Positions 3,884-50,891 of a stretch of DNA of 64,000 nucleotides are shown in pieces. The position numbers and the translations under genes were made by a program. Every line of letters begins with the position of its first letter. Position 1 is the stretch's first letter. Under the pieces are notes generated by a model. It was not told the DNA's origin. It saw nothing but the letters and a program-made list of their open reading frames with translations, and did not search any database. The stretch is from Gammaproteobacteria bacterium (GTDB taxonomy: Bacteria; Pseudomonadota; Gammaproteobacteria; Arenicellales; UBA868), in assembly GCA_022451485.1 (NCBI GenBank), contig JAKUQS010000014.1, positions 1-64,000 on the forward strand. The letters are read 5' to 3'.

Positions 3884-5293
3884 CTAAATCAGCCCCTTGG
3901 GTTGCCGCTTTTCTTCTATCGTTGCCTGTTCAAGTGCCCAGCCAATTCGGAGGACGGTTGCCTCGGCGAAAGGATGCCCATGAATACATAGTGATATGGG
4001 TAGACCATCTGGTCCGTAACCGTTCGGTAGGGCGAGTGCGCAGAGTTCAAGAAAATTAGTCGCTCGAGTGTAGTAAGCCGGGATCACCGTTTCATCGACC
4101 TCCGATGCAGGGATAGCTGTGGTAAAGCCGGTCGGCGTCAGCAAAGCATCAATTTCTTTCATGAGGTCCCGAAAAGTGCTCCGCCACGCGTTCATCTCCC
4201 GCATCCCATGAAGGTATTCTTTCGCGGTAACGTCGCGACCTGCGAGCATGCGTTGACGAACATGTTGATCCAGAGGAATATCTTCTTGATCCATCAGCTC
4301 GCAGGTTGTGGCATAGCCTTCAGCGCTTGCGACAGCAGACACGGCATTTCGAAAATCGCCGAACGAGCAGGGAAGTTCAACATTGACGAGGACAGCGCCA
4401 AGGGACTGCAGCACTCTGAGAGATTCATCGTAAGCAGCCAACACCGGGGCGGTAGCGTGAGTGCGTTCCGCTTCCGGCATGATGGCAAGACGCATCCCAT
4501 CAATTCCTTTCTTCAAGGTGGGCATCGGATCAACGGCCGTATGAAGGGTGGTTACTGGATCGTTTGGATCGGTACCTTGCATCAAGTTATAGATCAGTGC
4601 GGCGTCTTCCACGCAACGAACGAGAGGGCCAACGCTATCTAGGGTAGTGGATAATGGCATCACTCCGTGATTTGAGACTCGGCCAAAGGTTGGCTTCAGG
4701 CCAACCAGTCCACAGAAGCCGGAGGGTAAACGAACTGAGCCGCCAGTATCAGTCCCTAGTGTAAAGCCGGCGAGTCCTGCGGCACTTGCAACACCGGAGC
4801 CGCTGCTTGAACCGCCTGGAATTCGGTGAGTGGTTAGATCCCAGGGGTTCCAGGGTGTGCCTCGATGTTCGTTTGTCCCCCAACCGCCTAAAGCAAATTC
4901 CACTGTCTGAGTTTTTCCGATCACGATGGCGCCCGCCGCCTCAAGTTTGGCTATCACAGTCGCCGTATGATCAGAAATTCGGCCTTCAAGGGCCATTGAA
5001 CCCCACGTCGTTTGGTGGCCACTATATTCGATGATGTCTTTGACTCCGAACGGGATCCCGTGGAGTGGTCCACGCCAACGACCTTCTTCGGCGTCACGGT
5101 CAGCACTTTGCGCCGCTGCGCGGGAATGATCAGCTAGGACACTGACATAAGCATTCAACTTCGCGTCAAAGCGATCGATTCTCTCAAGGTAGAGATTCGT
5201 TAGTTGCAGCGCGGTCAGTTCACGAGCGCGCAACTTGCGGGCCAGTTCGTGAACGGGCGCAAAGGCGATGGATTGGGGGAGGTCTGTGCTCAT
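3884..5293 (-). CDS. Amidase-signature hydrolase
   Basis: An amidase-signature enzyme of about 469 residues, cytoplasmic. The Ser-cisSer-Lys catalytic machinery is visible: lysine in IPFGVKDII, the serine-rich loop GGSSSGSGVASAAG, and TDTGGSVRLPSGFCG with the nucleophile. The frame is open to 5353, but ATG 5293 (MSTDLPQS) gives the normal N-terminus. GatB or GatC neighbours are absent, so it is a catabolic amidase rather than the tRNA amidotransferase subunit. The substrate is unknown; allophanate, aryl or aliphatic amides are all possible for the family. Confidence 0.9.
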   Translation of the reverse strand: MSTDLPQSIAFAPVHELARKLRARELTALQLTNLYLERIDRFDAKLNAYVSVLADHSRAAAQSADRDAEEGRWRGPLHGIPFGVKDIIEYSGHQTTWGSMALEGRISDHTATVIAKLEAAGAIVIGKTQTVEFALGGWGTNEHRGTPWNPWDLTTHRIPGGSSSGSGVASAAGLAGFTLGTDTGGSVRLPSGFCGLVGLKPTFGRVSNHGVMPLSTTLDSVGPLVRCVEDAALIYNLMQGTDPNDPVTTLHTAVDPMPTLKKGIDGMRLAIMPEAERTHATAPVLAAYDESLRVLQSLGAVLVNVELPCSFGDFRNAVSAVASAEGYATTCELMDQEDIPLDQHVRQRMLAGRDVTAKEYLHGMREMNAWRSTFRDLMKEIDALLTPTGFTTAIPASEVDETVIPAYYTRATNFLELCALALPNGYGPDGLPISLCIHGHPFAEATVLRIGWALEQATIEEKRQPKGLI

Positions 5294-5534
5294 CGGCGTT
5301 ACAGTCAACAGTTTAAAGTGACGTTCAACATAGCATAGTTTGCTATTAGCCAATTTGCTTCGGCGTGGAGACTGCCCGTAGATGGATTAGGGCCGCCGAC
5401 TGTGAGCTTATGCCTGAATCAAAACAACCGTCAGCTGGATCGTGGCTAGAAAATCGAACTTCTATTAGCTGAGTTTCTGTGACGCTATTTAATCGTTCTG
5501 TTCTGGAAAAGGAGACAGGATAGGTAAAAAATTG

Positions 5535-6879: not shown

Positions 6880-8262
6880 TCAGTTGGCAGTCGATGATTG
6901 CTGTGCATCAGTCTGAGATTGAACGAGAGCATCAGAAAATGCAGCCAGACTGGACCTTCGCAACAGAAGGCAGTCTTTTGCTAGTCGTTTGCAGTGACGC
7001 TTGACTCTGTTCACCGCCTCATGACTTACGGAATCAATCGGACAACAGATAACGTCCGCTCGATGAAGCAGAGACTCCAATCGTTGGGAGCCATCCTCAA
7101 GTCCCCCGTCATGGTAATGAAAGTGGCCGTTAAAACGTTCTACTAGCGATCGGAAGAAACGCTGACGCCCAGTCTGACCGCCGACGTAGAGAATTGATTG
7201 GCCAGATAAATCTATAGCGGGATTCTGATCATCAGTTTCGTTAGATTCAGAATTGTTGTGCAGGCTAGTAATCAGGAGCGCCTGCATCGACCCATGTTCT
7301 CTTTCAGCGCAGCGTAGCTGGTCCCGTAAGTGTTGTATCTGACTTTTCAGAGCGCTTTCAGTTGAGCGTAATTCGAGATTTTCTGCGCGATTTCGCTCGT
7401 TATCCAGCCGCAGGGTAGCGAGGCTGCGGGCGAGTCGGTTTTTTTTATTTTTAAGGTCCGTAATTTCGGCTTGTGGTTCGCCAGCGCGATATCGGTCACA
7501 AATCTTCTGTAATTCGCGATTTTTTGCGTTAGTAATATTTACTTTATGGCTCAGGTGGGTGACAGCATGGCGTTGCTCTTCTTTGCTTTGTTCCAAGCAG
7601 CGCAACTGTTCTTTTAGTTGTCTATTGTGATCGCGGATTTCATCAGCTTGTTTCTGAGTTATGCGGATTGATGCGCCATTCAGGTGCGACATCATGTGAA
7701 TATCGCCAAGTGCTTCTTCTAGCAGTTTTTGTGTGGTGTGCGGGTTTGTCAGGAGCGCCCAGTACGCTCCGGCTGCGTCCCCAGATTTGACAGCCTGTCG
7801 CCATAATTTTGACTGTGTTTCGTGTTTCGTAGTATGAAAGCGCTGCGCGACCGATGCATACTTTTTTTCCAAATGTTTTTGAAGGAGCCGAATGTGGTGA
7901 TCTGTTTTGATGGCCCCATTGACAAACGTACTGTGCAGATGAAAGTCGCCAAGCTGACTAAAATTTGTGGACCCGCATTTTTTTGCAATCTTACGTAAAT
8001 CGGCAATTGAGACGCAGGTCCCGATCAGACTGCAGTGGTACTTTGCATCGATATGCCAGAGTTTCTTCTTTTGATGATTGGGTAATGGATTACGTAGCGC
8101 CGCCGAGTATGTTGGCAGCGCAGTGGTTTCGCAAGAATTGTTATCGATTGCTTTGTTTGTAGATTGGTTGAACATTTTTTTGGCAAGACTGTGTAAAAAA
8201 AGCGCACCGTTTCCCTCCACCTGGGAGTTAAGAGGACGGACGGTGCCACTCCGGGTCACCAT
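6880..8262 (-). CDS. DUF2325 domain-containing coiled-coil protein
   Basis: A 460-residue cytoplasmic protein with three parts. Residues about 65-200 hold a Cys/His-rich module beginning LWHIDAKYHCSLIGTC. A long coiled coil fills about 205-330. The C-terminal DUF2325 domain (about 355-445) has a Rossmann-like start, ILYVGGQTGRQRFF. Proteins of this build commonly sit in iron- or haem-related clusters of proteobacteria, but no biochemical role is established to my knowledge. It begins 9 bases after the fbpA stop and has no clear ribosome site; ATG 8175 is a possible shorter start. A sensor or scaffold role in iron/peroxide stress is inference. Confidence 0.8.
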   Translation of the reverse strand: MVTRSGTVRPLNSQVEGNGALFLHSLAKKMFNQSTNKAIDNNSCETTALPTYSAALRNPLPNHQKKKLWHIDAKYHCSLIGTCVSIADLRKIAKKCGSTNFSQLGDFHLHSTFVNGAIKTDHHIRLLQKHLEKKYASVAQRFHTTKHETQSKLWRQAVKSGDAAGAYWALLTNPHTTQKLLEEALGDIHMMSHLNGASIRITQKQADEIRDHNRQLKEQLRCLEQSKEEQRHAVTHLSHKVNITNAKNRELQKICDRYRAGEPQAEITDLKNKKNRLARSLATLRLDNERNRAENLELRSTESALKSQIQHLRDQLRCAEREHGSMQALLITSLHNNSESNETDDQNPAIDLSGQSILYVGGQTGRQRFFRSLVERFNGHFHYHDGGLEDGSQRLESLLHRADVICCPIDSVSHEAVNRVKRHCKRLAKDCLLLRRSSLAAFSDALVQSQTDAQQSSTAN

Positions 8263-42119: not shown

Positions 42120-43085
42120 ATGATTTGGCGCGCGCTACTTGCTCGGTTGTGTATTAGTGTTGTTACGCTGTTTGTCGTTTCGGTGTTGATTTTCATTGGC
42201 ACTAATCTGCTGCCCGGTGATGTGGCCCAGATTCTCCTGGGCCAGATGGCGACTCCTGAAAGCCTCGCGGCGTTACAGGCCAAACTGGGAATGGACCAAC
42301 CTGGTTATGTGCGGTACTTCATGTGGCTACGTGATGTGGCCACCGGTGACATGGGGTATTCAAAAGCTGGTCTGGGTGCGGGTAATGCAACACCGATCGT
42401 ACAGATTATCGAGCCGCGTATCTCCAACACACTACAGCTTACCGGTATGGTGGCAATCATTGCCATTCCCTTCGCTTTGTTTCTCGGATTGCTTGCCGCC
42501 ATGCGTCCCGGCACTCGACTCGATCGCTCGGTTACGTTTTCTACGTTGAGCCTGATTTCTGTGCCTGATTTTCTGGTGGCGACATTTCTCGTCCTGGTTT
42601 TTTCGGTTTATCTAGGGTGGTTGCCATCCATTGCCTATTTGAAGGGAGACGAGGCTGGGTGGGATTTAATTAAGGCATTGGCTATGCCCGCACTTACGCT
42701 AATTATTGTTGTCTCTGCACAGATCATTCGAATGACGCGAGCCACGGTGCTCAATGTGATGAGTTCACCCTATATTGAAATGGCAATACTCAAAGGTGTA
42801 CCGAGAAAGCGAATCATACTGCGACACGCACTGCTCAATGCCATTGGCCCAATCGTTAACGTGATTGCGCTGAACCTTGCCTGGCTTGTCGGCGGTGTTG
42901 TTATTGTCGAGCAGATTTTTGCGTATCCGGGACTCGCTAAATTGATGATTGATGCGGTACTTGTTAGGGATCTGCCATTAGTTCAAGCGTGTGCAATGAT
43001 TTTTTGTGCGAGTTACATCGTACTCATTTTTATTGCCGATATGGCGTCTATTCTTTCCAATCCCCGGTTGCGTCATCCCAAGTAG
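42120..43085 (+). CDS. ABC transporter permease, DppB type
   Basis: Inner-membrane permease of 321 residues with six predicted helices and the binding-protein-dependent transport signature (ILKGVPRKRIILRHALLNAIGP around residue 220). The N-terminal helix is followed by a long periplasmic loop, as usual for DppB/OppB. It pairs with the DppC-type permease that follows 13 bases after its stop, and imports the substrate bound by the Tat-exported protein. Confidence 0.92.
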   Translation: MIWRALLARLCISVVTLFVVSVLIFIGTNLLPGDVAQILLGQMATPESLAALQAKLGMDQPGYVRYFMWLRDVATGDMGYSKAGLGAGNATPIVQIIEPRISNTLQLTGMVAIIAIPFALFLGLLAAMRPGTRLDRSVTFSTLSLISVPDFLVATFLVLVFSVYLGWLPSIAYLKGDEAGWDLIKALAMPALTLIIVVSAQIIRMTRATVLNVMSSPYIEMAILKGVPRKRIILRHALLNAIGPIVNVIALNLAWLVGGVVIVEQIFAYPGLAKLMIDAVLVRDLPLVQACAMIFCASYIVLIFIADMASILSNPRLRHPK

Positions 43086-43098
43086 AAGATTCATCGCA

Positions 43099-44037
43099 AT
43101 GTCAGAAATACCACAAAGCACGACTACGAGCAGGCAGTTTGATGAGTTACCTGATGCGCCGCCTAAGCGAAAAATTAGGCTCAGTTGGTCAGGTAAACTG
43201 GGTATCGCGGTATTGGTTTTCTGGGCCACCATTGTTGCCATCGGTCCTTACATTGCTCCTTACGATGAGGCGGAATTCCTCGACGAGTCCTTGTTCATTG
43301 TGCCGGGCAGCGATGAGAAGTATCCGGATACTGATTTTCAGCCGCCCAGCCGAGTGGTTTTACTGGGAAGTGACTATATGGGCCGGGATACGTTATCGCG
43401 AATTCTTTTCGGCGCGAGGACGACGATTGGAATCTCGTTTATTGCCACAATTCTTGCTTACTTAATTGGTGTCACGCTCGGTATTGCGGCAGCGGTGGGC
43501 AGTCGTTTTCTTGATATGGTATTGAGTCGTGTGAACGATGCGTTGCTATCGATACCATCAATTATGTTAGGGCTTGTCATGATTGCCGCGTTGGGGAGCA
43601 CTATCCCATTATTAATTGTGCTGACGGGTATCATTTATGCCGCCAGCGTATTTCGTATTGCACGGTCTCTCGGCCAGGAGGTGATGGTTAGCGATTTTGT
43701 TGAGGCAGCGCGTGTGCGAGGTGAGGGCCTCTGGTGGATTATTACTAGGGAGATACTACCTAACGTCGCCATGCCGCTGGCGACGGATTTCGGATTACGA
43801 TTTGTTTGGGTTATTTTATTTATTTCTGCATTAAGTTTTCTTGGTCTGGGTGTGCAGCCTCCGATGTCAGATTGGGGCAGTATGGTGAAAGAAAATCTTC
43901 CGGGATTGATCTATGGTTCAGTAGCGCCTTTGGTTCCGTCGTTGGCCATCGCCACGCTCACGATATCAGTCAATATGATTGTAGACGACGTCTCGGCTCA
44001 GACGGGTGGAAAATTGGCCAAGAGGATGATCTCGTGA
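43099..44037 (+). CDS. ABC transporter permease, DppC type
   Basis: The second permease, about 312 residues. A cytoplasmic N-terminal tail of some 40 residues rich in Pro/Lys precedes the first helix, as usual in the DppC/OppC group. GSDYMGRDTLSRILFGAR and VEAARVRGEGLWWIITREILPN are diagnostic. The open frame reaches back to 43006, but ATG 43099 (MSEIPQST) begins after the DppB-type stop and is the natural start. The stop overlaps the GTG of the ATPase gene. Confidence 0.92.
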   Translation: MSEIPQSTTTSRQFDELPDAPPKRKIRLSWSGKLGIAVLVFWATIVAIGPYIAPYDEAEFLDESLFIVPGSDEKYPDTDFQPPSRVVLLGSDYMGRDTLSRILFGARTTIGISFIATILAYLIGVTLGIAAAVGSRFLDMVLSRVNDALLSIPSIMLGLVMIAALGSTIPLLIVLTGIIYAASVFRIARSLGQEVMVSDFVEAARVRGEGLWWIITREILPNVAMPLATDFGLRFVWVILFISALSFLGLGVQPPMSDWGSMVKENLPGLIYGSVAPLVPSLAIATLTISVNMIVDDVSAQTGGKLAKRMIS

Positions 44038-45848
44038 GTCCATTGCTCGCTGTCGATGACCTGAAGATCAGTGCTCGAAAGGATGACGGAGACTTGACGC
44101 CTATCGTCAAGGGGGTCACTTTCAACGTCGCTCGTGGTGAGGTGGTAGCGTTGATTGGCGAGTCAGGTTCAGGTAAGACGACCATTGCGCTTTCCGCGTT
44201 GGGGTATACCAAGCCCGGGTTGGAGTTTGTGGGGGGTGAAGTCCGTTTGGAAGGAGAGGACGTCATTACAATGGTTCCTGATCAGCAACGTGCGCTGCGT
44301 GGCCAAAGGGTCGCTTATCTGGCCCAGAGCGCCGCGGCGACATTTAACCCTGCGCTAACCATTGGGGAACAGGTGACCGAGTCCAGCGTGCTGCACGGTA
44401 TTTTGAGCAAAGAGCAAGCACATGAGCGGGCGAAAGTGCTTTACCAGGCGTTGGAGTTACCAGACCCGGAACTGCTCGGTCGACGTTACCCACATCAAGT
44501 TTCCGGTGGACAGTTACAGCGACTCATGGCGGCGATGGCGCTTTGCGGTAAGCCAGACTTGTTGGTTTTAGATGAGCCGACAACGGCGCTCGATGTCACG
44601 ACTCAGATAGAAGTTCTCAAGGCGTTTAAGTCGGTGATTAAGCAGGAAGGGTCATCAGCGATCTATGTTACCCACGATCTTTCTGTTGTAGCGCAGATTG
44701 CAGACCACATCGTTGTGCTGTACGCGGGTGAGACTCAGGAGTATGGAACGGCCGAGCAAGTCGTTAATCGCCCGACGCATGACTACACCCGTCGATTGAT
44801 GCATGCAGTTCGGCCTCCTCCTGCCGCAGGCCAGGGAGATGCGACGTCTGGTGAGCATAAACGAGATGCGCCGGCTCTAGAGGTTAGCAATATCACTGCA
44901 GGTTATGGGAAAAAGAGCGACGGTAAGCCTACGATAACTGTTTTACGAGACGTCAGTGTTGCTATTGAACGGGGTCAGAGTATCGGTGTGATCGGAGAAT
45001 CAGGCTGTGGGAAATCGACGCTTGCACGAGTGATGGCTGGTTTATTACCTGCTACAGAGGGCCAGGTTCTGTTGGGTGGACAGGAACTGAAATCGACACT
45101 TGTTCAGCGAAGTCGGGACGAGTTACAGAAGGTCCAATTCGTTTTTCAGATGGCGGATACTGCCCTGAATCCGAAACAGCGTATCGATCATATACTCGGA
45201 AGACCGTTAGAATTTTATCTGGGGTTAAAGGGCAAAGAGAAACGCAAGCGTGTGGGTGAGCTGCTCGAAATGGTCGAATTACCCCAGGATTTCGCGGGGC
45301 GTTATCCAGAAGAACTCTCCGGAGGGCAGAAACAGCGCGTGAATCTCGCTCGTGCATTAGCCGCCTCTCCAGAGGTGTTACTGTGTGATGAGGTCATATC
45401 CGCGCTGGATTCGATTGTCGGTGCTAATGTGATCGATTTGCTCAGGAGACTACGTCAACAGACCGGTGTGTCGTTCGTTTTCATTAGTCACGATCTATCG
45501 ACGGTTGCCTCTTTTGCGGATGAGATCGTGGTGCTTTATGCAGGTAGGGTAGTTGAGAAGGGCAGCACAGATAGGGTTCTGTCACCGCCTTACCATCCTT
45601 ATACGCGGTTGCTGATCAGTTCTGTTCCAGAATTGCGTGTGGGTTGGTTGGAAGAGGCTGTGCAGACTCAAGAAGCCCAAGCGGGTATTGACCGGTTGGT
45701 GACGTTGACAGAGACAGGATGCCCATTTTTTGATCGGTGTCCGTTGGCTATAGAGGATACCTGTGATCAGGAAACTCCTCCGATTCGTGATCTAGGTGAA
45801 GGACATCTCATCAGCTGCCATCGGTCCGAATCTGAATTCCGCCACTGA
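44034..45848 (+). CDS. Fused double ABC ATPase (DppD-DppF type)
   Basis: A 604-residue fusion of the two ATPases that normally energise peptide importers. Domain 1 (about 5-260) has GESGSGKTT, VSGGQLQR and LLVLDEPTTALD. Domain 2 (about 280-540) has GESGCGKST, LSGGQKQR and VLLCDEVISALD. A C-terminal oligopeptide-transporter tail with Cys residues (CPFFDRCPLA) closes the protein; it may bind an iron-sulfur cluster as in DppD/DppF. GTG 44034 overlaps the permease stop (GTGA). An open frame continues upstream to 43806 but lies inside the permease gene. Confidence 0.93.
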   Translation: MSPLLAVDDLKISARKDDGDLTPIVKGVTFNVARGEVVALIGESGSGKTTIALSALGYTKPGLEFVGGEVRLEGEDVITMVPDQQRALRGQRVAYLAQSAAATFNPALTIGEQVTESSVLHGILSKEQAHERAKVLYQALELPDPELLGRRYPHQVSGGQLQRLMAAMALCGKPDLLVLDEPTTALDVTTQIEVLKAFKSVIKQEGSSAIYVTHDLSVVAQIADHIVVLYAGETQEYGTAEQVVNRPTHDYTRRLMHAVRPPPAAGQGDATSGEHKRDAPALEVSNITAGYGKKSDGKPTITVLRDVSVAIERGQSIGVIGESGCGKSTLARVMAGLLPATEGQVLLGGQELKSTLVQRSRDELQKVQFVFQMADTALNPKQRIDHILGRPLEFYLGLKGKEKRKRVGELLEMVELPQDFAGRYPEELSGGQKQRVNLARALAASPEVLLCDEVISALDSIVGANVIDLLRRLRQQTGVSFVFISHDLSTVASFADEIVVLYAGRVVEKGSTDRVLSPPYHPYTRLLISSVPELRVGWLEEAVQTQEAQAGIDRLVTLTETGCPFFDRCPLAIEDTCDQETPPIRDLGEGHLISCHRSESEFRH

Positions 45849-46016: not shown

Positions 46017-47357
46017 ATGACGAAGTCAGCACCACCCGTTGGGTCCAGTGTCCTACAACGCGTGAATCGGGCACTATGTCCACAGGGCCATGTATTTCGC
46101 GGTTGGTGGGTGGTGGGTTCTGGGGGTCTAGCAAATTTCTTTGGCGCAATCCTGTTTATGCAGGCTTTTGGCGCCTATGTTTTGTTGATCGAGGACGAAT
46201 TTGGCTGGAGCAAGGCGGCTCTCGCGGGCGCATTTGCACTGGCGCGGCTGGAAAGCGGACTCCTGGGACCGCTCCAGGGTTGGATGATTGATCGGTTTGG
46301 GCCACGCGTGATCATGCGCTGCGGCCTTATCATCTTTGGTGTAGGCATGATCGCGTTGAGCCAGATTGTCTCGATCTGGGATTTCTACATCGTTGTTTTT
46401 GCCATCGCACTGGGCAGCAGTCTTGGTGGGTTCTTATCGGTGACGGTTGCATTGGTGAATTGGTTTAACCGTCACCGCGCAAAGGCGCTAGCGCTTGCCC
46501 AACTGGGTTTTTCTCTCGGCGGGGTACTGGTTCCAATCACCATCTTTGCAATGGAAACCGTTGGCTGGCGCGCGACTGCAATTGCTTCTGGAATAATCAT
46601 TCTGTTGGTGACATGGCCGGTCACTCAGGTAATGCACCATCGACCTGACGAATTGGGAGAGACTCGGGACGGACTTCCAGATGTCGAGTTTGGAGCTCGA
46701 AGTGATGCAGGGGCCCAAGTACAGCGGCCCATCGATCGTAGTTGGGAGTTCACGGCGCGAGAAGCATTGCGAACGAGCAGTTTCTGGTGGATTTCCCTCG
46801 GGCATGCAACTTCGCTCCTAGTTGTTGGTGCCGTCATGGTCCATTTGGTGCTGCACGTACATGGGAGCCTGGGTTATTCCTTGGGCACTGCAGGATTGAT
46901 TGTCGCGCTGGTTACTTTGATGCAGATTGTTGGCCAGGTGGGTATCACAATCGTCGGAGATCGAGTCAACAAACAGATTACCGTTGTGATTTGCATGGGA
47001 GTGCATGCGGCCGGTTTATTACTGTTGGCCTATGCCCAGAACATGGCGATGGTCATCAGCTTTGCCGTTTTGCATGGTATCGCGTGGGGTGTACGCGGTC
47101 CGCTGATGCAGGCACTTAGGGCAGACTATTTCGGCACGGCCAGTTTTGGAACTATTATGGGTTGGTCATCGTTAGTCGTAATGGCGGGTATGTCCATCGG
47201 CCCGATTTTCGCTGGCTGGATGGCCGACCAGACCGGCAGCTATACGGCTGGTTTTGCCGTGCTGTCAGCCGCTGCGTTGTTTGGTTCGGTATTTTTTGTT
47301 CTCGCGAAAAAGCCGATGTTGCCTGACCGAGGGACTGTGCCTGACCAAAAGGCGTAG
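46017..47357 (+). CDS. MFS transporter (oxalate/formate-antiporter-like)
   Basis: A 446-residue twelve-helix permease. The loop motif GWMIDRFGPRVIMR follows helix 2, and AGWMADQTGSY lies in the second half. The N-terminus FRGWWVVGSGGLANFFGA is typical of the OFA/monocarboxylate type of MFS. It probably carries a carboxylate. It is 12 bases ahead of the glycosyltransferase gene and so may share the following transcript, although its function does not obviously connect. Confidence 0.88.
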   Translation: MTKSAPPVGSSVLQRVNRALCPQGHVFRGWWVVGSGGLANFFGAILFMQAFGAYVLLIEDEFGWSKAALAGAFALARLESGLLGPLQGWMIDRFGPRVIMRCGLIIFGVGMIALSQIVSIWDFYIVVFAIALGSSLGGFLSVTVALVNWFNRHRAKALALAQLGFSLGGVLVPITIFAMETVGWRATAIASGIIILLVTWPVTQVMHHRPDELGETRDGLPDVEFGARSDAGAQVQRPIDRSWEFTAREALRTSSFWWISLGHATSLLVVGAVMVHLVLHVHGSLGYSLGTAGLIVALVTLMQIVGQVGITIVGDRVNKQITVVICMGVHAAGLLLLAYAQNMAMVISFAVLHGIAWGVRGPLMQALRADYFGTASFGTIMGWSSLVVMAGMSIGPIFAGWMADQTGSYTAGFAVLSAAALFGSVFFVLAKKPMLPDRGTVPDQKA

Positions 47358-47369
47358 TATCGGATTCAA

Positions 47370-48260
47370 ATGAGTAAGGTCTCAGTGATCATTCCGACCT
47401 ATAACCGCGGGGCTGTGGTGCTGCGCGCGTTACGTTCGGTTTTCGCACAAGACCATGCAGTTGATCAGGTGATTGTTGTTGATGACGGCTCTACCGATGA
47501 CACTATCGAGCAAGTCGAACGTAATTTCCCCGGGGTCGAGTTGATAGCACAAACTAACCACGGGGTTAGCCATGCTCGCAATCGCGGCATAGAGCGAGCC
47601 CGCAACGAGTGGTTAGCTTTCCTTGATTCTGATGACGAATGGTTACCGGGAAAGATCACTGCACAATTAGCAGCAATTATGTCTGACGGAATATCGTGTG
47701 TCTGTCACAGCGATGAAATCTGGATTCGTAATGGTCGACGGGTTAATCCAATGAATAAGCATCGCAAGTACGGTGGAGACATTTTTTTGCACTGCCTGCC
47801 GCGCTGTGTGATGTCACCGTCGTCGGTTGTATTGCACCGATCGCTGTTCGACGAAGTGGGGATGTTTGATGAGACGCTACCGGTGTGTGAGGATTATGAT
47901 TTATGGCTACGGATCGCATCCCAAACAAGAGTGCTCTATGTTCCAGAGAAGCTTGTGATCAAATATGGTGGCCACAAAGATCAATTGTCTCGGTCGTCGT
48001 GGGGCATGGATCGTTACCGCATTCAGGCGCTTGAAAAACTGCTCTTATCGGAAGTGCTATCAGAAGCGCAGTACCGCGAGACCGTCGCAGAGATGGTGCG
48101 CAAGATTGACATCTATGTCGCCGGTGCTCGTCGACGAGAACGATGGCAGGAGGTGCAGCGTTATACCCAGAAACGGATCCACTATGAGAGCACCATCGCG
48201 GTGTCCTCGCGTCTTGGGCAGCGCAGTGAGGCAATGGAGTCGTGGTCATGTTTCTGGTAG
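47370..48260 (+). CDS. Family 2 glycosyltransferase
   Basis: A 296-residue GT-A glycosyltransferase. It has VSVIIPTYNRGAVVLRAL at the start, VVDDGSTDDT, the Asp-rich DSDDEWLPGK near residue 90, and ETLPVCEDYDLWLRIA near 170. The donor and acceptor are unknown. Its end overlaps the start of the nucleoside-phosphorylase-like gene by 13-19 bases. Close neighbours are a spore-photoproduct-lyase-like enzyme and an SDR rather than sugar-polymer genes, which is unusual. Confidence 0.88.
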   Translation: MSKVSVIIPTYNRGAVVLRALRSVFAQDHAVDQVIVVDDGSTDDTIEQVERNFPGVELIAQTNHGVSHARNRGIERARNEWLAFLDSDDEWLPGKITAQLAAIMSDGISCVCHSDEIWIRNGRRVNPMNKHRKYGGDIFLHCLPRCVMSPSSVVLHRSLFDEVGMFDETLPVCEDYDLWLRIASQTRVLYVPEKLVIKYGGHKDQLSRSSWGMDRYRIQALEKLLLSEVLSEAQYRETVAEMVRKIDIYVAGARRRERWQEVQRYTQKRIHYESTIAVSSRLGQRSEAMESWSCFW

Positions 48261-49108
48261 TGGCACTGCAGGCGGAAGCTCAGCCGTTAATCACACATTT
48301 TGGTCTCAGATGCGAGCCCCCAACGGGTATGTTTCGTATCTATCGAAGCGACGCCATGGCGCTCGTCATCTCGGGAGTTGGCAAATCATTATCAGCCGCG
48401 GCAACCGGCTACCTTTGTGGGTGCAGCCATGGGTGGCGGAATGCACCATGGATTAATGTTGGTGTTGCCGGTCACCGGGATGCAGATGTCGGTGAGTTAA
48501 TCGTGGCTAACAAGATCATCGATCAATCCACGGCCCATAGTTGGTATCCACCACAGCTTGTTTCGAGCGTAGTGAATTCGACATTGATTACCGTCGATGA
48601 ACCGGAAGAAATTTATCGAGAAGGCGCAGCCTATGACATGGAGGCAGCGGGGTTTTTCCCTTCAGCTACTCGATGCAGCAGTAGTGAATTGGTCCAGAGT
48701 ATTAAAGTTATCTCTGACAATCCACACCAGTCGATCGCGTCGGTGAATGCTCGATTGATAGAGGAATTAATAACAAAAAATCTGAGTAAAATAGAACAGT
48801 TCATCAATCGATTGAGCGAACTCTCCATTGAAGTCAAAGTGTTGCCAGCCAGTGGAAGCCTTCCGGAGTCATGGGCGAACCGTTGGTCCTTTAGCGTGAC
48901 GCAGGGTCATCGTTTGCGCCGATTGCTACAGCGATGGAGGGCCTTGATTGACGATGGAGAAACCCTTGATTCTGTTTTGGTTGCCTGCAAAGATGGCGCG
49001 GCGGTATTAACGGCGCTTGAAGCGCGTTTGAGTGCTGAGAAACCCACCTACGGCCGGTCTTCGCTGGCCGGGCCTCGGGTCAGTACTAAGCCCGAAGTGC
49101 ATTCGTAA
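48248..49108 (+). CDS. Nucleoside-phosphorylase-like protein
   Basis: A protein of about 286 residues. Residues 1-180 resemble the MTA/SAH nucleosidase/phosphorylase fold: FLVVALQAEAQPL at the start, INVGVAGHRDADVGELIVA in the middle, and YDMEAAGFF, the segment carrying the catalytic-type glutamate. The remaining 100 residues are a helical extension with no recognised motif. GTG 48242 is an alternative start. TAATG overlap couples it to the SPL-like gene. It may process a nucleoside product linked to that enzyme (inference). Confidence 0.75.
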   Translation: MFLVVALQAEAQPLITHFGLRCEPPTGMFRIYRSDAMALVISGVGKSLSAAATGYLCGCSHGWRNAPWINVGVAGHRDADVGELIVANKIIDQSTAHSWYPPQLVSSVVNSTLITVDEPEEIYREGAAYDMEAAGFFPSATRCSSSELVQSIKVISDNPHQSIASVNARLIEELITKNLSKIEQFINRLSELSIEVKVLPASGSLPESWANRWSFSVTQGHRLRRLLQRWRALIDDGETLDSVLVACKDGAAVLTALEARLSAEKPTYGRSSLAGPRVSTKPEVHS

Positions 49109-50166
49109 TGATCGAAACGCTTTATATCGAACAGGCGATTGCAACGCACTCTCGAGTGCGTGAGATTAGCGCTCGATTTCCGCATGCCAATCAAGTGATG
49201 TGCGAGCGCTACGGTGCAGTGTTCAATCGAAAGAGTCAGAACTTCCGGCTGCAGAAAAAGAGCCCCTCGCTGATTCTTGCCCGTAAACATGACAATCATG
49301 TTTTGGCGACACCAGAGGGTTATGGGATAGGAGGGAGCAATAACTACTACTTCTCTCATATGCTCAACTGTATTTATGATTGCCGTTACTGCTTTTTGCA
49401 GGGGATGTATCGTTCTGCGCATTACGTGTTGTTTGTTAACTACGATGATTTTTTTAGTGCGATGGATGCGAAGTTAATGACCCACGAAGGAGAGGATGTC
49501 TGGTTTTTCTCTGGTTATGATTGTGACAGCTTGGCACTTGATCCGTTGACTGGCTTCGCACAGCATTTGCTGTCGTATCTTGAGACGAGACCGCATGCAA
49601 TGGTTGAGTTGCGAACCAAGAGCACACAGATTCGGGCATTGCTTGGACAAGCACCGTTGTCCAATGTGATCGTTGCCTTCAGCCTTACACCCGAGCCCGC
49701 CGCAGTTGCGCTTGAACATAAGACGCCAAGTGTCGCCAAACGACTCAGCGCGATGACGCAGTTAGCTGAAAACGGCTGGCGTCTGGGATTGCGTTTTGAC
49801 CCCTTGCTCGACGATGTTCGTTTTGAAGACCACTACCAAGCGCTGTTTCGAGATATTTTTGATCGCATTGATCCGACTTGTATTCACTCAGTCACCATCG
49901 GGCCTTTTAGAATGCCAGATCCCTTTTTTAGTAACGTTGTCCGTCTTTATCCTGATGAGCCTTTGTTCGCGGGTTCGTTCGCCAATCGTGAAGGCTTGGT
50001 CACTTATCCCAAGGCGCGTGAGGCGGCGATGTTGGAGTTCTGCCTTGACGCGCTCCAGGATCACGTGTCAGGCGACAAGATCTTTAGCTGTGCTATCGAT
50101 AGCCGGGAAACAGTGCGCCCAGATACCGAATCGACCGACCCTAACCTGCTTGCGAGTTCGCATTGA
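49108..50166 (+). CDS. splB: Spore-photoproduct-lyase-like radical SAM protein
   Basis: A 352-residue radical SAM enzyme of the SplB family, which reverses the UV lesion spore photoproduct in spore formers. The cluster-binding cysteines are C88, C92 and C95 in CIYDCRYC. C139 in GYDCDSLALDPLTG lies where SplB has its hydrogen-donor cysteine (C141 in Bacillus). The organism gives no sign of sporulation, so the substrate is probably another DNA lesion or nucleotide. Start and stop overlap the neighbours by one base on both sides. Confidence 0.85.
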   Translation: MIETLYIEQAIATHSRVREISARFPHANQVMCERYGAVFNRKSQNFRLQKKSPSLILARKHDNHVLATPEGYGIGGSNNYYFSHMLNCIYDCRYCFLQGMYRSAHYVLFVNYDDFFSAMDAKLMTHEGEDVWFFSGYDCDSLALDPLTGFAQHLLSYLETRPHAMVELRTKSTQIRALLGQAPLSNVIVAFSLTPEPAAVALEHKTPSVAKRLSAMTQLAENGWRLGLRFDPLLDDVRFEDHYQALFRDIFDRIDPTCIHSVTIGPFRMPDPFFSNVVRLYPDEPLFAGSFANREGLVTYPKAREAAMLEFCLDALQDHVSGDKIFSCAIDSRETVRPDTESTDPNLLASSH

Positions 50167-50891
50167 TGAGTGTGAAAAGAAAAATTCTTCTGGCCGGTGC
50201 AGGCGGCGGTATCGGACGCAGTATTGCCACCTTGTTGCTATCCAGTGATTGGCGAATAGTCGGCTTAGGGCGAGATTTAGTCCGACCCGAATTTAGCCAG
50301 AAGGATTTTGCTCAGGCGACGATTGATCTGTCTGACCTCGAGCATTTGCCTGAACAATTAGGATTAGTGGCGAGCGAACACGGTGACATCGACGGCGTTG
50401 TCTGTGCCGCGGGGATTGGTCGATTTGGCTCGTTGGAAGAATTCTCTTACGCACAAATTCGTGAGTTAATCGACATTAATTTAACCAGCCAGGTTTATGT
50501 GGTACGAGCGTTTCTACCGCTGCTGAAACGTCGTGGCAGGGGAGACGTAGTCTTGATCGGTTCAGAGGCCGCATTGGCGGGAGGCGCGCGGGGCGCTGTA
50601 TATAGCGCCACCAAATTCGCCTTACGTGGGTTTTGTCAATCGTTACGACAGGAATCTGCGGCTGCCGGTGTCCGAGTAACCCTCATTAATCCGGGTATGG
50701 TGCGCACAGGATTTTTTGACCATCTTGACTTTCAACCAGGCGAAGACCTAGCTAATGCTATTGTCCCCGAAGATATTGCGATTGCCGTAAAAATGGTGCT
50801 CAGCGCGCGACCGGAAACAGTATTTGACGAGATTAACCTCTCGCCATTGAAAAAGGTGGTAAGGCGAAAAAACAGGGCGTCCCTGCCCTGA
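50166..50891 (+). CDS. SDR-family oxidoreductase
   Basis: A short-chain dehydrogenase of 241 residues. The cofactor loop is GAGGGIGRSIA, the segment AAGIG replaces the usual NNAG, and the catalytic YSATKFALRGF supplies Tyr and Lys. A serine lies about 13 residues earlier in LIGSEAA. ATG 50166 overlaps the SPL-like stop. It is the last gene of the coupled cassette; the substrate is unknown. Its 3' end contains a terminator that works for the opposite strand. Confidence 0.9.
   Translation: MSVKRKILLAGAGGGIGRSIATLLLSSDWRIVGLGRDLVRPEFSQKDFAQATIDLSDLEHLPEQLGLVASEHGDIDGVVCAAGIGRFGSLEEFSYAQIRELIDINLTSQVYVVRAFLPLLKRRGRGDVVLIGSEAALAGGARGAVYSATKFALRGFCQSLRQESAAAGVRVTLINPGMVRTGFFDHLDFQPGEDLANAIVPEDIAIAVKMVLSARPETVFDEINLSPLKKVVRRKNRASLP
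50867..50890 (-). terminator. Rho-independent terminator for the Bcr/CflA gene
   Basis: Read on the minus strand, CAGGGC and GCCCTG form a stem with a 6-base loop, followed by six T residues (complement of 50867-50872). It lies 37 bases beyond the stop of the carrier gene and inside the SDR coding sequence. Confidence 0.7.

What the first reader, a model, noticed from the sequence alone, without database searches (positions are those of the whole stretch)
48248..50891. Coupled phosphorylase-like, SPL-like and SDR genes in a presumed non-sporulating bacterium
Three genes overlap by one base each: a nucleoside-phosphorylase-like protein with an extra C-terminal domain, a radical SAM SplB relative that keeps C88/C92/C95 and a Cys at the donor position (C139), and an SDR. 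This looks like a small pathway acting on a nucleoside or photoproduct, perhaps excising or reversing DNA or nucleotide damage, distinct from spore repair.
Basis: partly seen in the sequence, partly recalled or inferred. Interest (0 to 1): 0.63.

Follow-up and report, generated by a model that had tools for sequence, protein, structure and literature searches.

The report
Unstudied radical-SAM and nucleosidase gene module
Four neighbouring genes (a sugar transferase, an enzyme that should clip the base off a nucleoside, a radical enzyme resembling a spore DNA-repair protein, and a reductase) are inherited together in many uncultured, largely marine bacteria, and they look like an unknown biosynthetic pathway rather than DNA repair.

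Summary
In detail: the three genes exist at the stated coordinates and overlap by one base each. GT2, the MTAN-like nucleosidase, the SplB-like radical SAM (rSAM) protein and the SDR form a real module. All 26 distant genomes checked that carry the rSAM also carry one nucleosidase, 17 carry one GT2, and genes unlinked in some genomes are still retained. Among 100 relatives, GT2 and the nucleosidase coincide in 66, with one exception at a contig end. Relatives lacking this rSAM nearly all have a second, longer SPL-family rSAM instead (22 of 23). The nucleosidase's extra C-terminal domain tracks the short rSAM gene. DNA repair is not supported: C139 is near-invariant but lies two residues past the SplB donor cysteine (Tyr here), the SplB relay tyrosine is Phe, and a glycosyltransferase belongs to the set. 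Best mechanism (inferred): 5'-deoxyadenosyl transfer to an unknown acceptor, adenine removal, reduction, glycosylation, paralleling HpnH/HpnG/HpnI hopanoid chemistry. The main rival is a radical reaction whose by-product 5'-deoxyadenosine is cleared by a dedicated nucleosidase. No paper on this module was found in the open-access library searched.

The parts
47370..48260 (+).
   Evidence: Pfam Glycos_transf_2 8e-33; invariant D86-S87-D88, C142-L-P-x-C146, E174-D175 in the family; co-occurs with the nucleosidase in 66/100 relatives; nearest solved relative by profile is the chondroitin synthase GT domain
48248..49108 (+). MTAN/futalosine-hydrolase-like nucleosidase, 286 aa; ATG start by homology
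   Evidence: PNP_UDP_1 4.6e-05; fut_nucase 4.2e-06, below cut-off; invariant E10, M131-E132, S156-D157; model residues 1-196 match MTAN, Z 22.7
48836..49105 (+). extra C-terminal helical extension of the nucleosidase (about residues 197-286)
   Evidence: outside the MTAN match; present with the short SplB-like gene in 40/41 genomes (the exception is a contig break) and in only 2/25 without an intact one, both with gene remnants
49108..50166 (+). SplB-like radical SAM protein, 352 aa (short SPL-like family)
   Evidence: Pfam SPL 4.2e-17; AlphaFold model pLDDT 87.6; best PDB match spore photoproduct lyase 4fhc Z 33.6 over 316 residues, next family Z 15.5
49369..49392 (+). CxxxCxxC radical SAM motif, C88 I Y D C92 R Y C95; followed by F96 where SplB has its relay Tyr
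   Evidence: Cys invariant in 56/56, position 96 Phe in 53/56
49522..49524 (+). C139 in the conserved motif G-Y-D-C-D-S-L-A; two residues after the SplB donor-Cys column
   Evidence: C in 55/56; alignment to Gt SPL
50166..50891 (+). SDR oxidoreductase, 241 aa (ATG 50166); R37 after beta-2 suggests NADP(H)
   Evidence: adh_short 4.2e-39; N106, S134, Y147, K151 and R37 (numbered from the TTG at 50163, one residue ahead of the ATG) invariant in the family alignment
46017..47357 (+). MFS transporter ending 12 bases before GT2; adjacent in some family members only
   Evidence: MFS_1 1e-38; same gene family beside or near the cassette in L103, L105, L106

Best explanation
A four-gene biosynthetic module. 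SHOWN: GT2, MTAN-type nucleosidase, SPL-fold radical SAM enzyme and SDR are inherited together, and all four keep their catalytic motifs. INFERRED: the radical SAM enzyme cleaves SAM to the 5'-deoxyadenosyl radical and attaches it to an unsaturated small-molecule or lipid acceptor, with C139 probably quenching the adduct radical. SAM is probably not regenerated, because the SplB relay tyrosine is Phe. The nucleosidase then hydrolyses the N-glycosidic bond and releases adenine, exposing a 5-deoxyribose attached to the acceptor. The SDR reduces that sugar aldehyde (or a keto group) and GT2 adds a sugar. The chemical logic is that of HpnH-HpnG-(reductase)-HpnI in bacteriohopanepolyol synthesis. 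The acceptor is unknown.
For: Co-inheritance: 26/26 rSAM-bearing genomes have one nucleosidase and 17/26 one GT2, also where the genes are unlinked. In 100 relatives GT2 and nucleosidase match in 66, with one GT2-only genome where the gene runs off a contig end. The nucleosidase is present where a short or long SPL-family rSAM is: 65 both, 1 nucleosidase only, 4 rSAM only, 30 neither. Phylum-wide, rSAM and nucleosidase each ring in only the window's own genome of 398. The nucleosidase C-terminal extension tracks the short rSAM. Catalytic residues are invariant: MTAN-type E10, E132, D157, SDR Y147/K151, CxxxCxxC, and near-invariant C139. In SplB, mutating the relay Tyr to Phe abolishes SAM regeneration (PMC3742179); this family has Phe there. 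HpnH has a Cys at position 106 that controls product stereochemistry, HpnG removes adenine, HpnI glycosylates (PMC12583986). The own genome has a separate MTA phosphorylase, so the nucleosidase is not the housekeeping enzyme.
Against: No substrate or product is known, and nothing here shows adenosyl transfer rather than simple hydrogen abstraction. GT2 plus nucleosidase persist in some lineages without the short rSAM and SDR beside them, and the longer SPL paralog there is unlinked and lacks C139. GT2 is missing in 9 of 26 genomes, some of them incomplete. The association statistics are not corrected for phylogeny.
Confidence: 0.4

Rival explanations
1. Radical SAM hydrogen abstraction plus dedicated by-product removal: the SPL-like enzyme oxidises or rearranges a substrate (for example a sugar or nucleotide), releasing 5'-deoxyadenosine stoichiometrically. 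The nucleosidase cleaves 5'-deoxyadenosine to relieve product inhibition, and SDR and GT2 act on the substrate itself.
For: Tyr-to-Phe at the relay position predicts no SAM regeneration. 5'-deoxyadenosine inhibits radical SAM enzymes and must be removed (PMC8102628). The nucleosidase has MTAN fold and residues.
Against: Most relatives, with or without the cassette, already have an MTAP-family enzyme that could do this job, and a dedicated nucleosidase with its own C-terminal domain tied to one rSAM is more than by-product disposal needs. One family with the cassette (f10) has only weak MTAP matches, which fits this rival.
Confidence: 0.27
2. One reading: reversal or excision of a UV photoproduct or damaged nucleotide, with the SPL-like enzyme as a non-spore photoproduct lyase.
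For: The SPL fold is by far the best structural match (Z 33.6 against 15.5 for the next family); CxxxCxxC and a nearby conserved Cys are present.
Against: Donor-Cys column is Tyr and relay Tyr is Phe; scores are far below the curated SPL cut-offs, 71.5 of 400 and 59.9 of 437.55 bits; glycosyltransferase and SDR partners; no DNA-repair gene recurs among the neighbours of the short-rSAM cassette.
Confidence: 0.06
3. GT2 plus nucleosidase form one old pathway, for example trimming and glycosylation of a nucleoside-derived compound made by another enzyme. The SplB-like gene and SDR are later add-ons that tailor the same product, and the apparent swap with the long SPL paralog is a lineage coincidence.
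For: GT2-nucleosidase is the tightest pair and exists without rSAM or SDR neighbours in two families. Intact rSAM has decayed in three genomes while GT2 and nucleosidase remain.
Against: 22 of 23 genomes with the pair but without the short rSAM carry a long SPL-family rSAM, against 3 of 34 genomes without the nucleosidase.
Confidence: 0.2

Closest known systems
Spore photoproduct lyase SplB (TIGR04070, PDB 4fhc)
   Same: Whole-length fold (Z 33.6, 316 residues, 17% identity), CxxxCxxC, conserved Lys/Ser positions along the barrel
   Different: Donor Cys column is Tyr (a Cys lies two residues later), relay Tyr is Phe, score far below the equivalog cut-off, non-spore context with GT2/nucleosidase/SDR
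HpnH-HpnG-HpnI bacteriohopanepolyol pathway
   Same: Pathway logic: radical SAM with a key Cys, adenine-removing nucleosidase/phosphorylase, glycosyltransferase, and a need for a reductase (PMC12583986)
   Different: The rSAM is SPL-family, not HpnH; no HpnH found in 100 relatives, though the control genomes were also silent
Futalosine menaquinone pathway, MqnE with futalosine hydrolase/MTAN
   Same: Radical SAM adenosylation followed by an MTAN-type nucleosidase (established knowledge); futalosine hydrolase is the nearest curated nucleosidase family
   Different: The rSAM is closest to SPL, not MqnE (Z 13.6 against 33.6); no menaquinone gene was recognised beside the cassette
Arsenosugar pathway with ArsS (TIGR04167) and GT TIGR04283
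   Same: rSAM adenosyl transfer plus a GT2; the window GT2 scores 77 bits to TIGR04283
   Different: Below the cut-off of 182 bits; ArsS-family genes lie elsewhere, and four cassette genomes of the same family had no ArsS match

Membership tests
Spore photoproduct lyase (SplB) | CxxxCxxC [4Fe-4S] motif | tested here: met
   C88, C92, C95 invariant in 56/56
Spore photoproduct lyase (SplB) | SPL fold over the whole protein | tested here: met
   4fhc Z 33.6, rmsd 2.3 over 316 residues
Spore photoproduct lyase (SplB) | Donor cysteine (Bs C141 / Gt C140) | tested here: not met
   Y137 at that column; C139 aligns with Gt S142
Spore photoproduct lyase (SplB) | Relay tyrosine Bs Y99 / Gt Y98 | tested here: not met
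   Phe in 53/56 members, F96 in the window
Spore photoproduct lyase (SplB) | Curated equivalog cut-off TIGR04070 | tested here: not met
   71.5 bits against 400
Spore photoproduct lyase (SplB) | Repairs spore photoproduct in vitro | not testable with these tools
   needs a radical SAM assay
SPL family protein TIGR03886 | Curated cut-off 437.55 bits | tested here: not met
   59.9 bits
MTA/SAH nucleosidase / futalosine hydrolase superfamily | MTAN fold | tested here: met
   Z 22.7 to 2h8g over 191 residues, model residues 1-196
MTA/SAH nucleosidase / futalosine hydrolase superfamily | Catalytic Glu, Met-Glu and Ser-Asp positions | tested here: met
   E10, M131-E132, S156-D157 invariant; M131-E132 and S156-D157 align with the MTAN ME and SD motifs in the profile alignment
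MTA/SAH nucleosidase / futalosine hydrolase superfamily | Curated equivalog cut-offs | tested here: not met
   futalosine hydrolase 26.6 against 124.7 bits; NF004079 18.4 against 169
HpnH/HpnG hopanoid pathway | rSAM belongs to HpnH (TIGR03470) | tested here: not met
   TIGR03470 not among families with E up to 1 for the window rSAM
HpnH/HpnG hopanoid pathway | HpnH elsewhere in the genome | tested here: inconclusive
   no match in 100 relatives, but no control genome rang either
Arsenosugar biosynthesis | rSAM belongs to ArsS (TIGR04167) | tested here: not met
   TIGR04167 not among families with E up to 1 for the window rSAM; the genome's TIGR04167 gene is on contig C70
Classical SDR | Glycine motif, N-S-Y-K catalytic set | tested here: met
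   N106, S134, Y147, K151 invariant
GT2 glycosyltransferase | GT2 family match and DxD-type motif | tested here: met
   Glycos_transf_2 8e-33, D86-S87-D88 invariant

The most novel reading that the evidence does not exclude
An undescribed pathway in which an SPL-fold radical SAM enzyme, repurposed from photoproduct repair chemistry, installs a 5'-deoxyadenosyl group on an unknown acceptor. A co-evolved nucleosidase then removes adenine, and an SDR and a GT2 finish a new ribose-derived glycolipid or metabolite; a second SPL paralog has displaced the first in sister lineages.
Probability: 0.3. Interest if true: 0.75.

Novelty: new variant of a known kind. Interest (0 to 1): 0.55.

Why it matters
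SPL-family radical SAM proteins tend to be annotated as photoproduct lyases. Here a whole subfamily lacks the SplB radical relay and is tied to a nucleosidase, a glycosyltransferase and a reductase, which points to metabolism instead of DNA repair. If the adenosyl-transfer reading is right, it adds another pathway to the few known ones that use SAM as a source of ribose carbon (hopanoids, futalosine, arsenosugars), with an enzyme family not known for it, in widespread uncultured bacteria.

Tried and rejected
Photoproduct repair: rejected on donor and relay residues and partners. Known anti-phage defence: no PADLOC match for any of the four proteins. Nucleosidase as the housekeeping MTAN: rejected for the window genome, since a true MTAP above cut-off sits on contig C53. 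Arsenosugar pathway: ArsS presence did not track the cassette within families, and the window genome's ArsS-family gene is on another contig beside other genes. Hopanoids: no HpnH found, but the control was silent, so this is not excluded. Extra conserved neighbours: the neighbours differ between lineages (malate dehydrogenase, ProC/YggT, a secreted methyltransferase, a NUDIX protein, cysteine synthase), and none travels with the cassette across all lineages. Distance correlation between the protein families was high (r 0.92-0.97) but is confounded by species relatedness, so it is not used as evidence. Literature searches found no paper on the module; the library holds open-licence PMC papers only. 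A residue-level superposition of the model on 4fhd could not be made because coordinates are not provided.
Full report
WHAT IS THERE. The three genes of the finding exist as described: nucleosidase-like 48248-49108, SplB-like 49108-50166, SDR 50166-50891, joined by TAATG and TGATG overlaps of one base each. An MFS transporter ends 12 bases before GT2. A transporter of the same family sits beside or near the cassette in three loci from the same bacterial family (L103, L105, L106), so it is local and not core.

FAMILIES. Pfam and NCBIfam place the rSAM in the SPL family but far below the curated SPL cut-offs (71.5 of 400 and 59.9 of 437.55 bits). The nucleosidase is nearest to futalosine hydrolase and MTA/SAH nucleosidase, also below cut-off. 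The SDR and GT2 are generic members of their superfamilies. The AlphaFold model of the rSAM (pLDDT 87.6) matches spore photoproduct lyase over nearly its whole length (4fhc, Z 33.6, 316 residues, rmsd 2.3), well above the next families at Z 15.5. The nucleosidase model (pLDDT 88) matches MTAN over residues 1-196 (Z 22.7); about 90 C-terminal residues lie outside it.

DISTRIBUTION. A genome scan gave 43 further loci, titled Gammaproteobacteria (including Methylococcales and Granulosicoccaceae) and Alphaproteobacteria single-cell genomes, with single MAGs labelled Waddliaceae and Rickettsiales. Among 100 relatives of the window genome, 40 have the short SPL-like gene. In an even sample of 398 genomes of the phylum only the window's own genome has it, and the same is true of the nucleosidase. 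The module is therefore restricted to particular lineages.

CO-INHERITANCE. In most loci the order is GT2, nucleosidase, rSAM, SDR, in whole or in part. Where the neighbourhood differs, the partners are usually still in the genome. All 26 genomes tested have exactly one nucleosidase of this family, although in Methylococcales the rSAM and SDR lie apart from it. 17 of 26 have exactly one GT2 of this family, in Granulosicoccaceae some 25-35 kb away on the same contig or on another contig. In the 100 relatives, nucleosidase and GT2 agree in 66 present and 33 absent; the one disagreement (G034) has GT2 cut by a contig end. One genome (G082) has an intact rSAM with neither partner found.

TWO ALTERNATIVE SPL-FAMILY ENZYMES. 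Twenty-three relatives have GT2 plus nucleosidase but no match to the short rSAM in the genome search. Twenty-two of these carry a longer SPL-family protein of about 430-450 residues; only 3 of the 34 genomes without the nucleosidase carry it, and only 3 genomes have both the short gene (or a fragment of it) and the long one. Counting either enzyme, the nucleosidase co-occurs in 65, with 1 and 4 exceptions and 30 double absences; the association holds separately inside the window's family and outside it. Three genomes of one family (G033, G051, G069) carry only decayed pieces of the short gene beside GT2 and nucleosidase; the pieces in G051 were found by a closer look. The nucleosidase's C-terminal extension is present in 40 of 41 genomes with the short rSAM, the exception being a gene cut by a contig break, and in only 2 of 25 without an intact one, both of which have rSAM remnants. 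This suggests that the extension serves the short rSAM, for example as a docking or channelling part (inference). These tests are not corrected for phylogeny.

ACTIVE SITES. Across 56 short rSAM sequences C88, C92 and C95 are invariant, and C139 is conserved in 55 within the motif GYDCDSLA. Single-sequence and profile alignments to Geobacillus SPL, without gaps nearby, place Y137 at the hydrogen-donor cysteine (Gt C140) and C139 at Gt S142. The SplB relay tyrosine (Gt Y98, Bs Y99) is Phe in 53 of 56. In SplB the Tyr-to-Phe change stops SAM regeneration, so SAM is consumed once per turnover (PMC3742179). The long SPL paralogs have neither the Cys nor the Tyr (motif GQSSDSL). The nucleosidase keeps the MTAN catalytic positions (E10, M131-E132, S156-D157), invariant across the 21 aligned members. 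The SDR keeps N106, S134, Y147 and K151 and an invariant R37 that suggests NADP(H) (the cofactor inference is from general SDR knowledge).

MECHANISM. A radical SAM enzyme that probably consumes SAM, paired with an MTAN-type nucleosidase, fits two schemes. In the first, which I favour at about 0.4, the 5'-deoxyadenosyl group is added to an acceptor, the nucleosidase removes adenine, the SDR reduces the exposed sugar and GT2 glycosylates. This is the order of events in bacteriohopanepolyol synthesis: HpnH adds the adenosyl radical and has a cysteine at position 106 that matters for its product, HpnG removes adenine, an unidentified enzyme converts ribosylhopane to bacteriohopanetetrol, and HpnI adds a sugar (PMC12583986). 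In the second, the radical reaction releases free 5'-deoxyadenosine, an inhibitor of radical SAM enzymes (PMC8102628), and the nucleosidase disposes of it; that most relatives already have an MTAP-family enzyme makes this less needed but does not exclude it. A third possibility is that GT2 and nucleosidase are the old core and the rSAM and SDR are later tailoring steps.

VERDICT. The DNA-damage reading is not supported. The rSAM is an SPL-fold protein but not a spore photoproduct lyase by the residues that define one. The module looks like an undescribed metabolic pathway of a known general kind; its substrate and product are unknown.

Noticed in passing
L128-L147 (e.g. L136:5025-6326, L128:5039-6349): A longer SPL-family radical SAM protein (about 430-450 aa) with an extra conserved cysteine-rich stretch (CPVAS..RCCNL) before the CxxxCxxC motif. 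It is nearly exclusive with the short one; in one family it sits near RnfB, endonuclease III and an ArsS-family rSAM.
   Followed up: partly
L126 near 7600-7860, L127 near 2130-2376, L153 near 5205-5374: Decayed remnants of the short SplB-like gene beside intact GT2 and nucleosidase genes in three related genomes.
   Followed up: yes
L149, L150 and L152 (G038, G055, G044): A TIGR04167 (ArsS-family) radical SAM gene next to what look like a DUF692 (MNIO) protein, a DUF2063 protein and a DoxX-like protein (named from memory), i.e. probably a peptide-modification setting and not arsenosugars; L151 and L154 show the usual arsenosugar neighbours.
   Followed up: no
L037 (PAQS01000018.1): The cassette in a MAG labelled Waddliaceae (Chlamydiota): transfer or a binning error.
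   Followed up: no
window 43006-45848: ABC importer permease followed by a fused double-ATPase gene (DppD/DppF-like) just upstream of the MFS gene and the cassette; similar ABC genes precede it in L103.
   Followed up: no
L056:4409-5209, L044:4574-5383, L022:8252-9229: A putative secreted class I methyltransferase lies next to or near the nucleosidase or rSAM in some Alphaproteobacteria and Methylococcales.
   Followed up: partly
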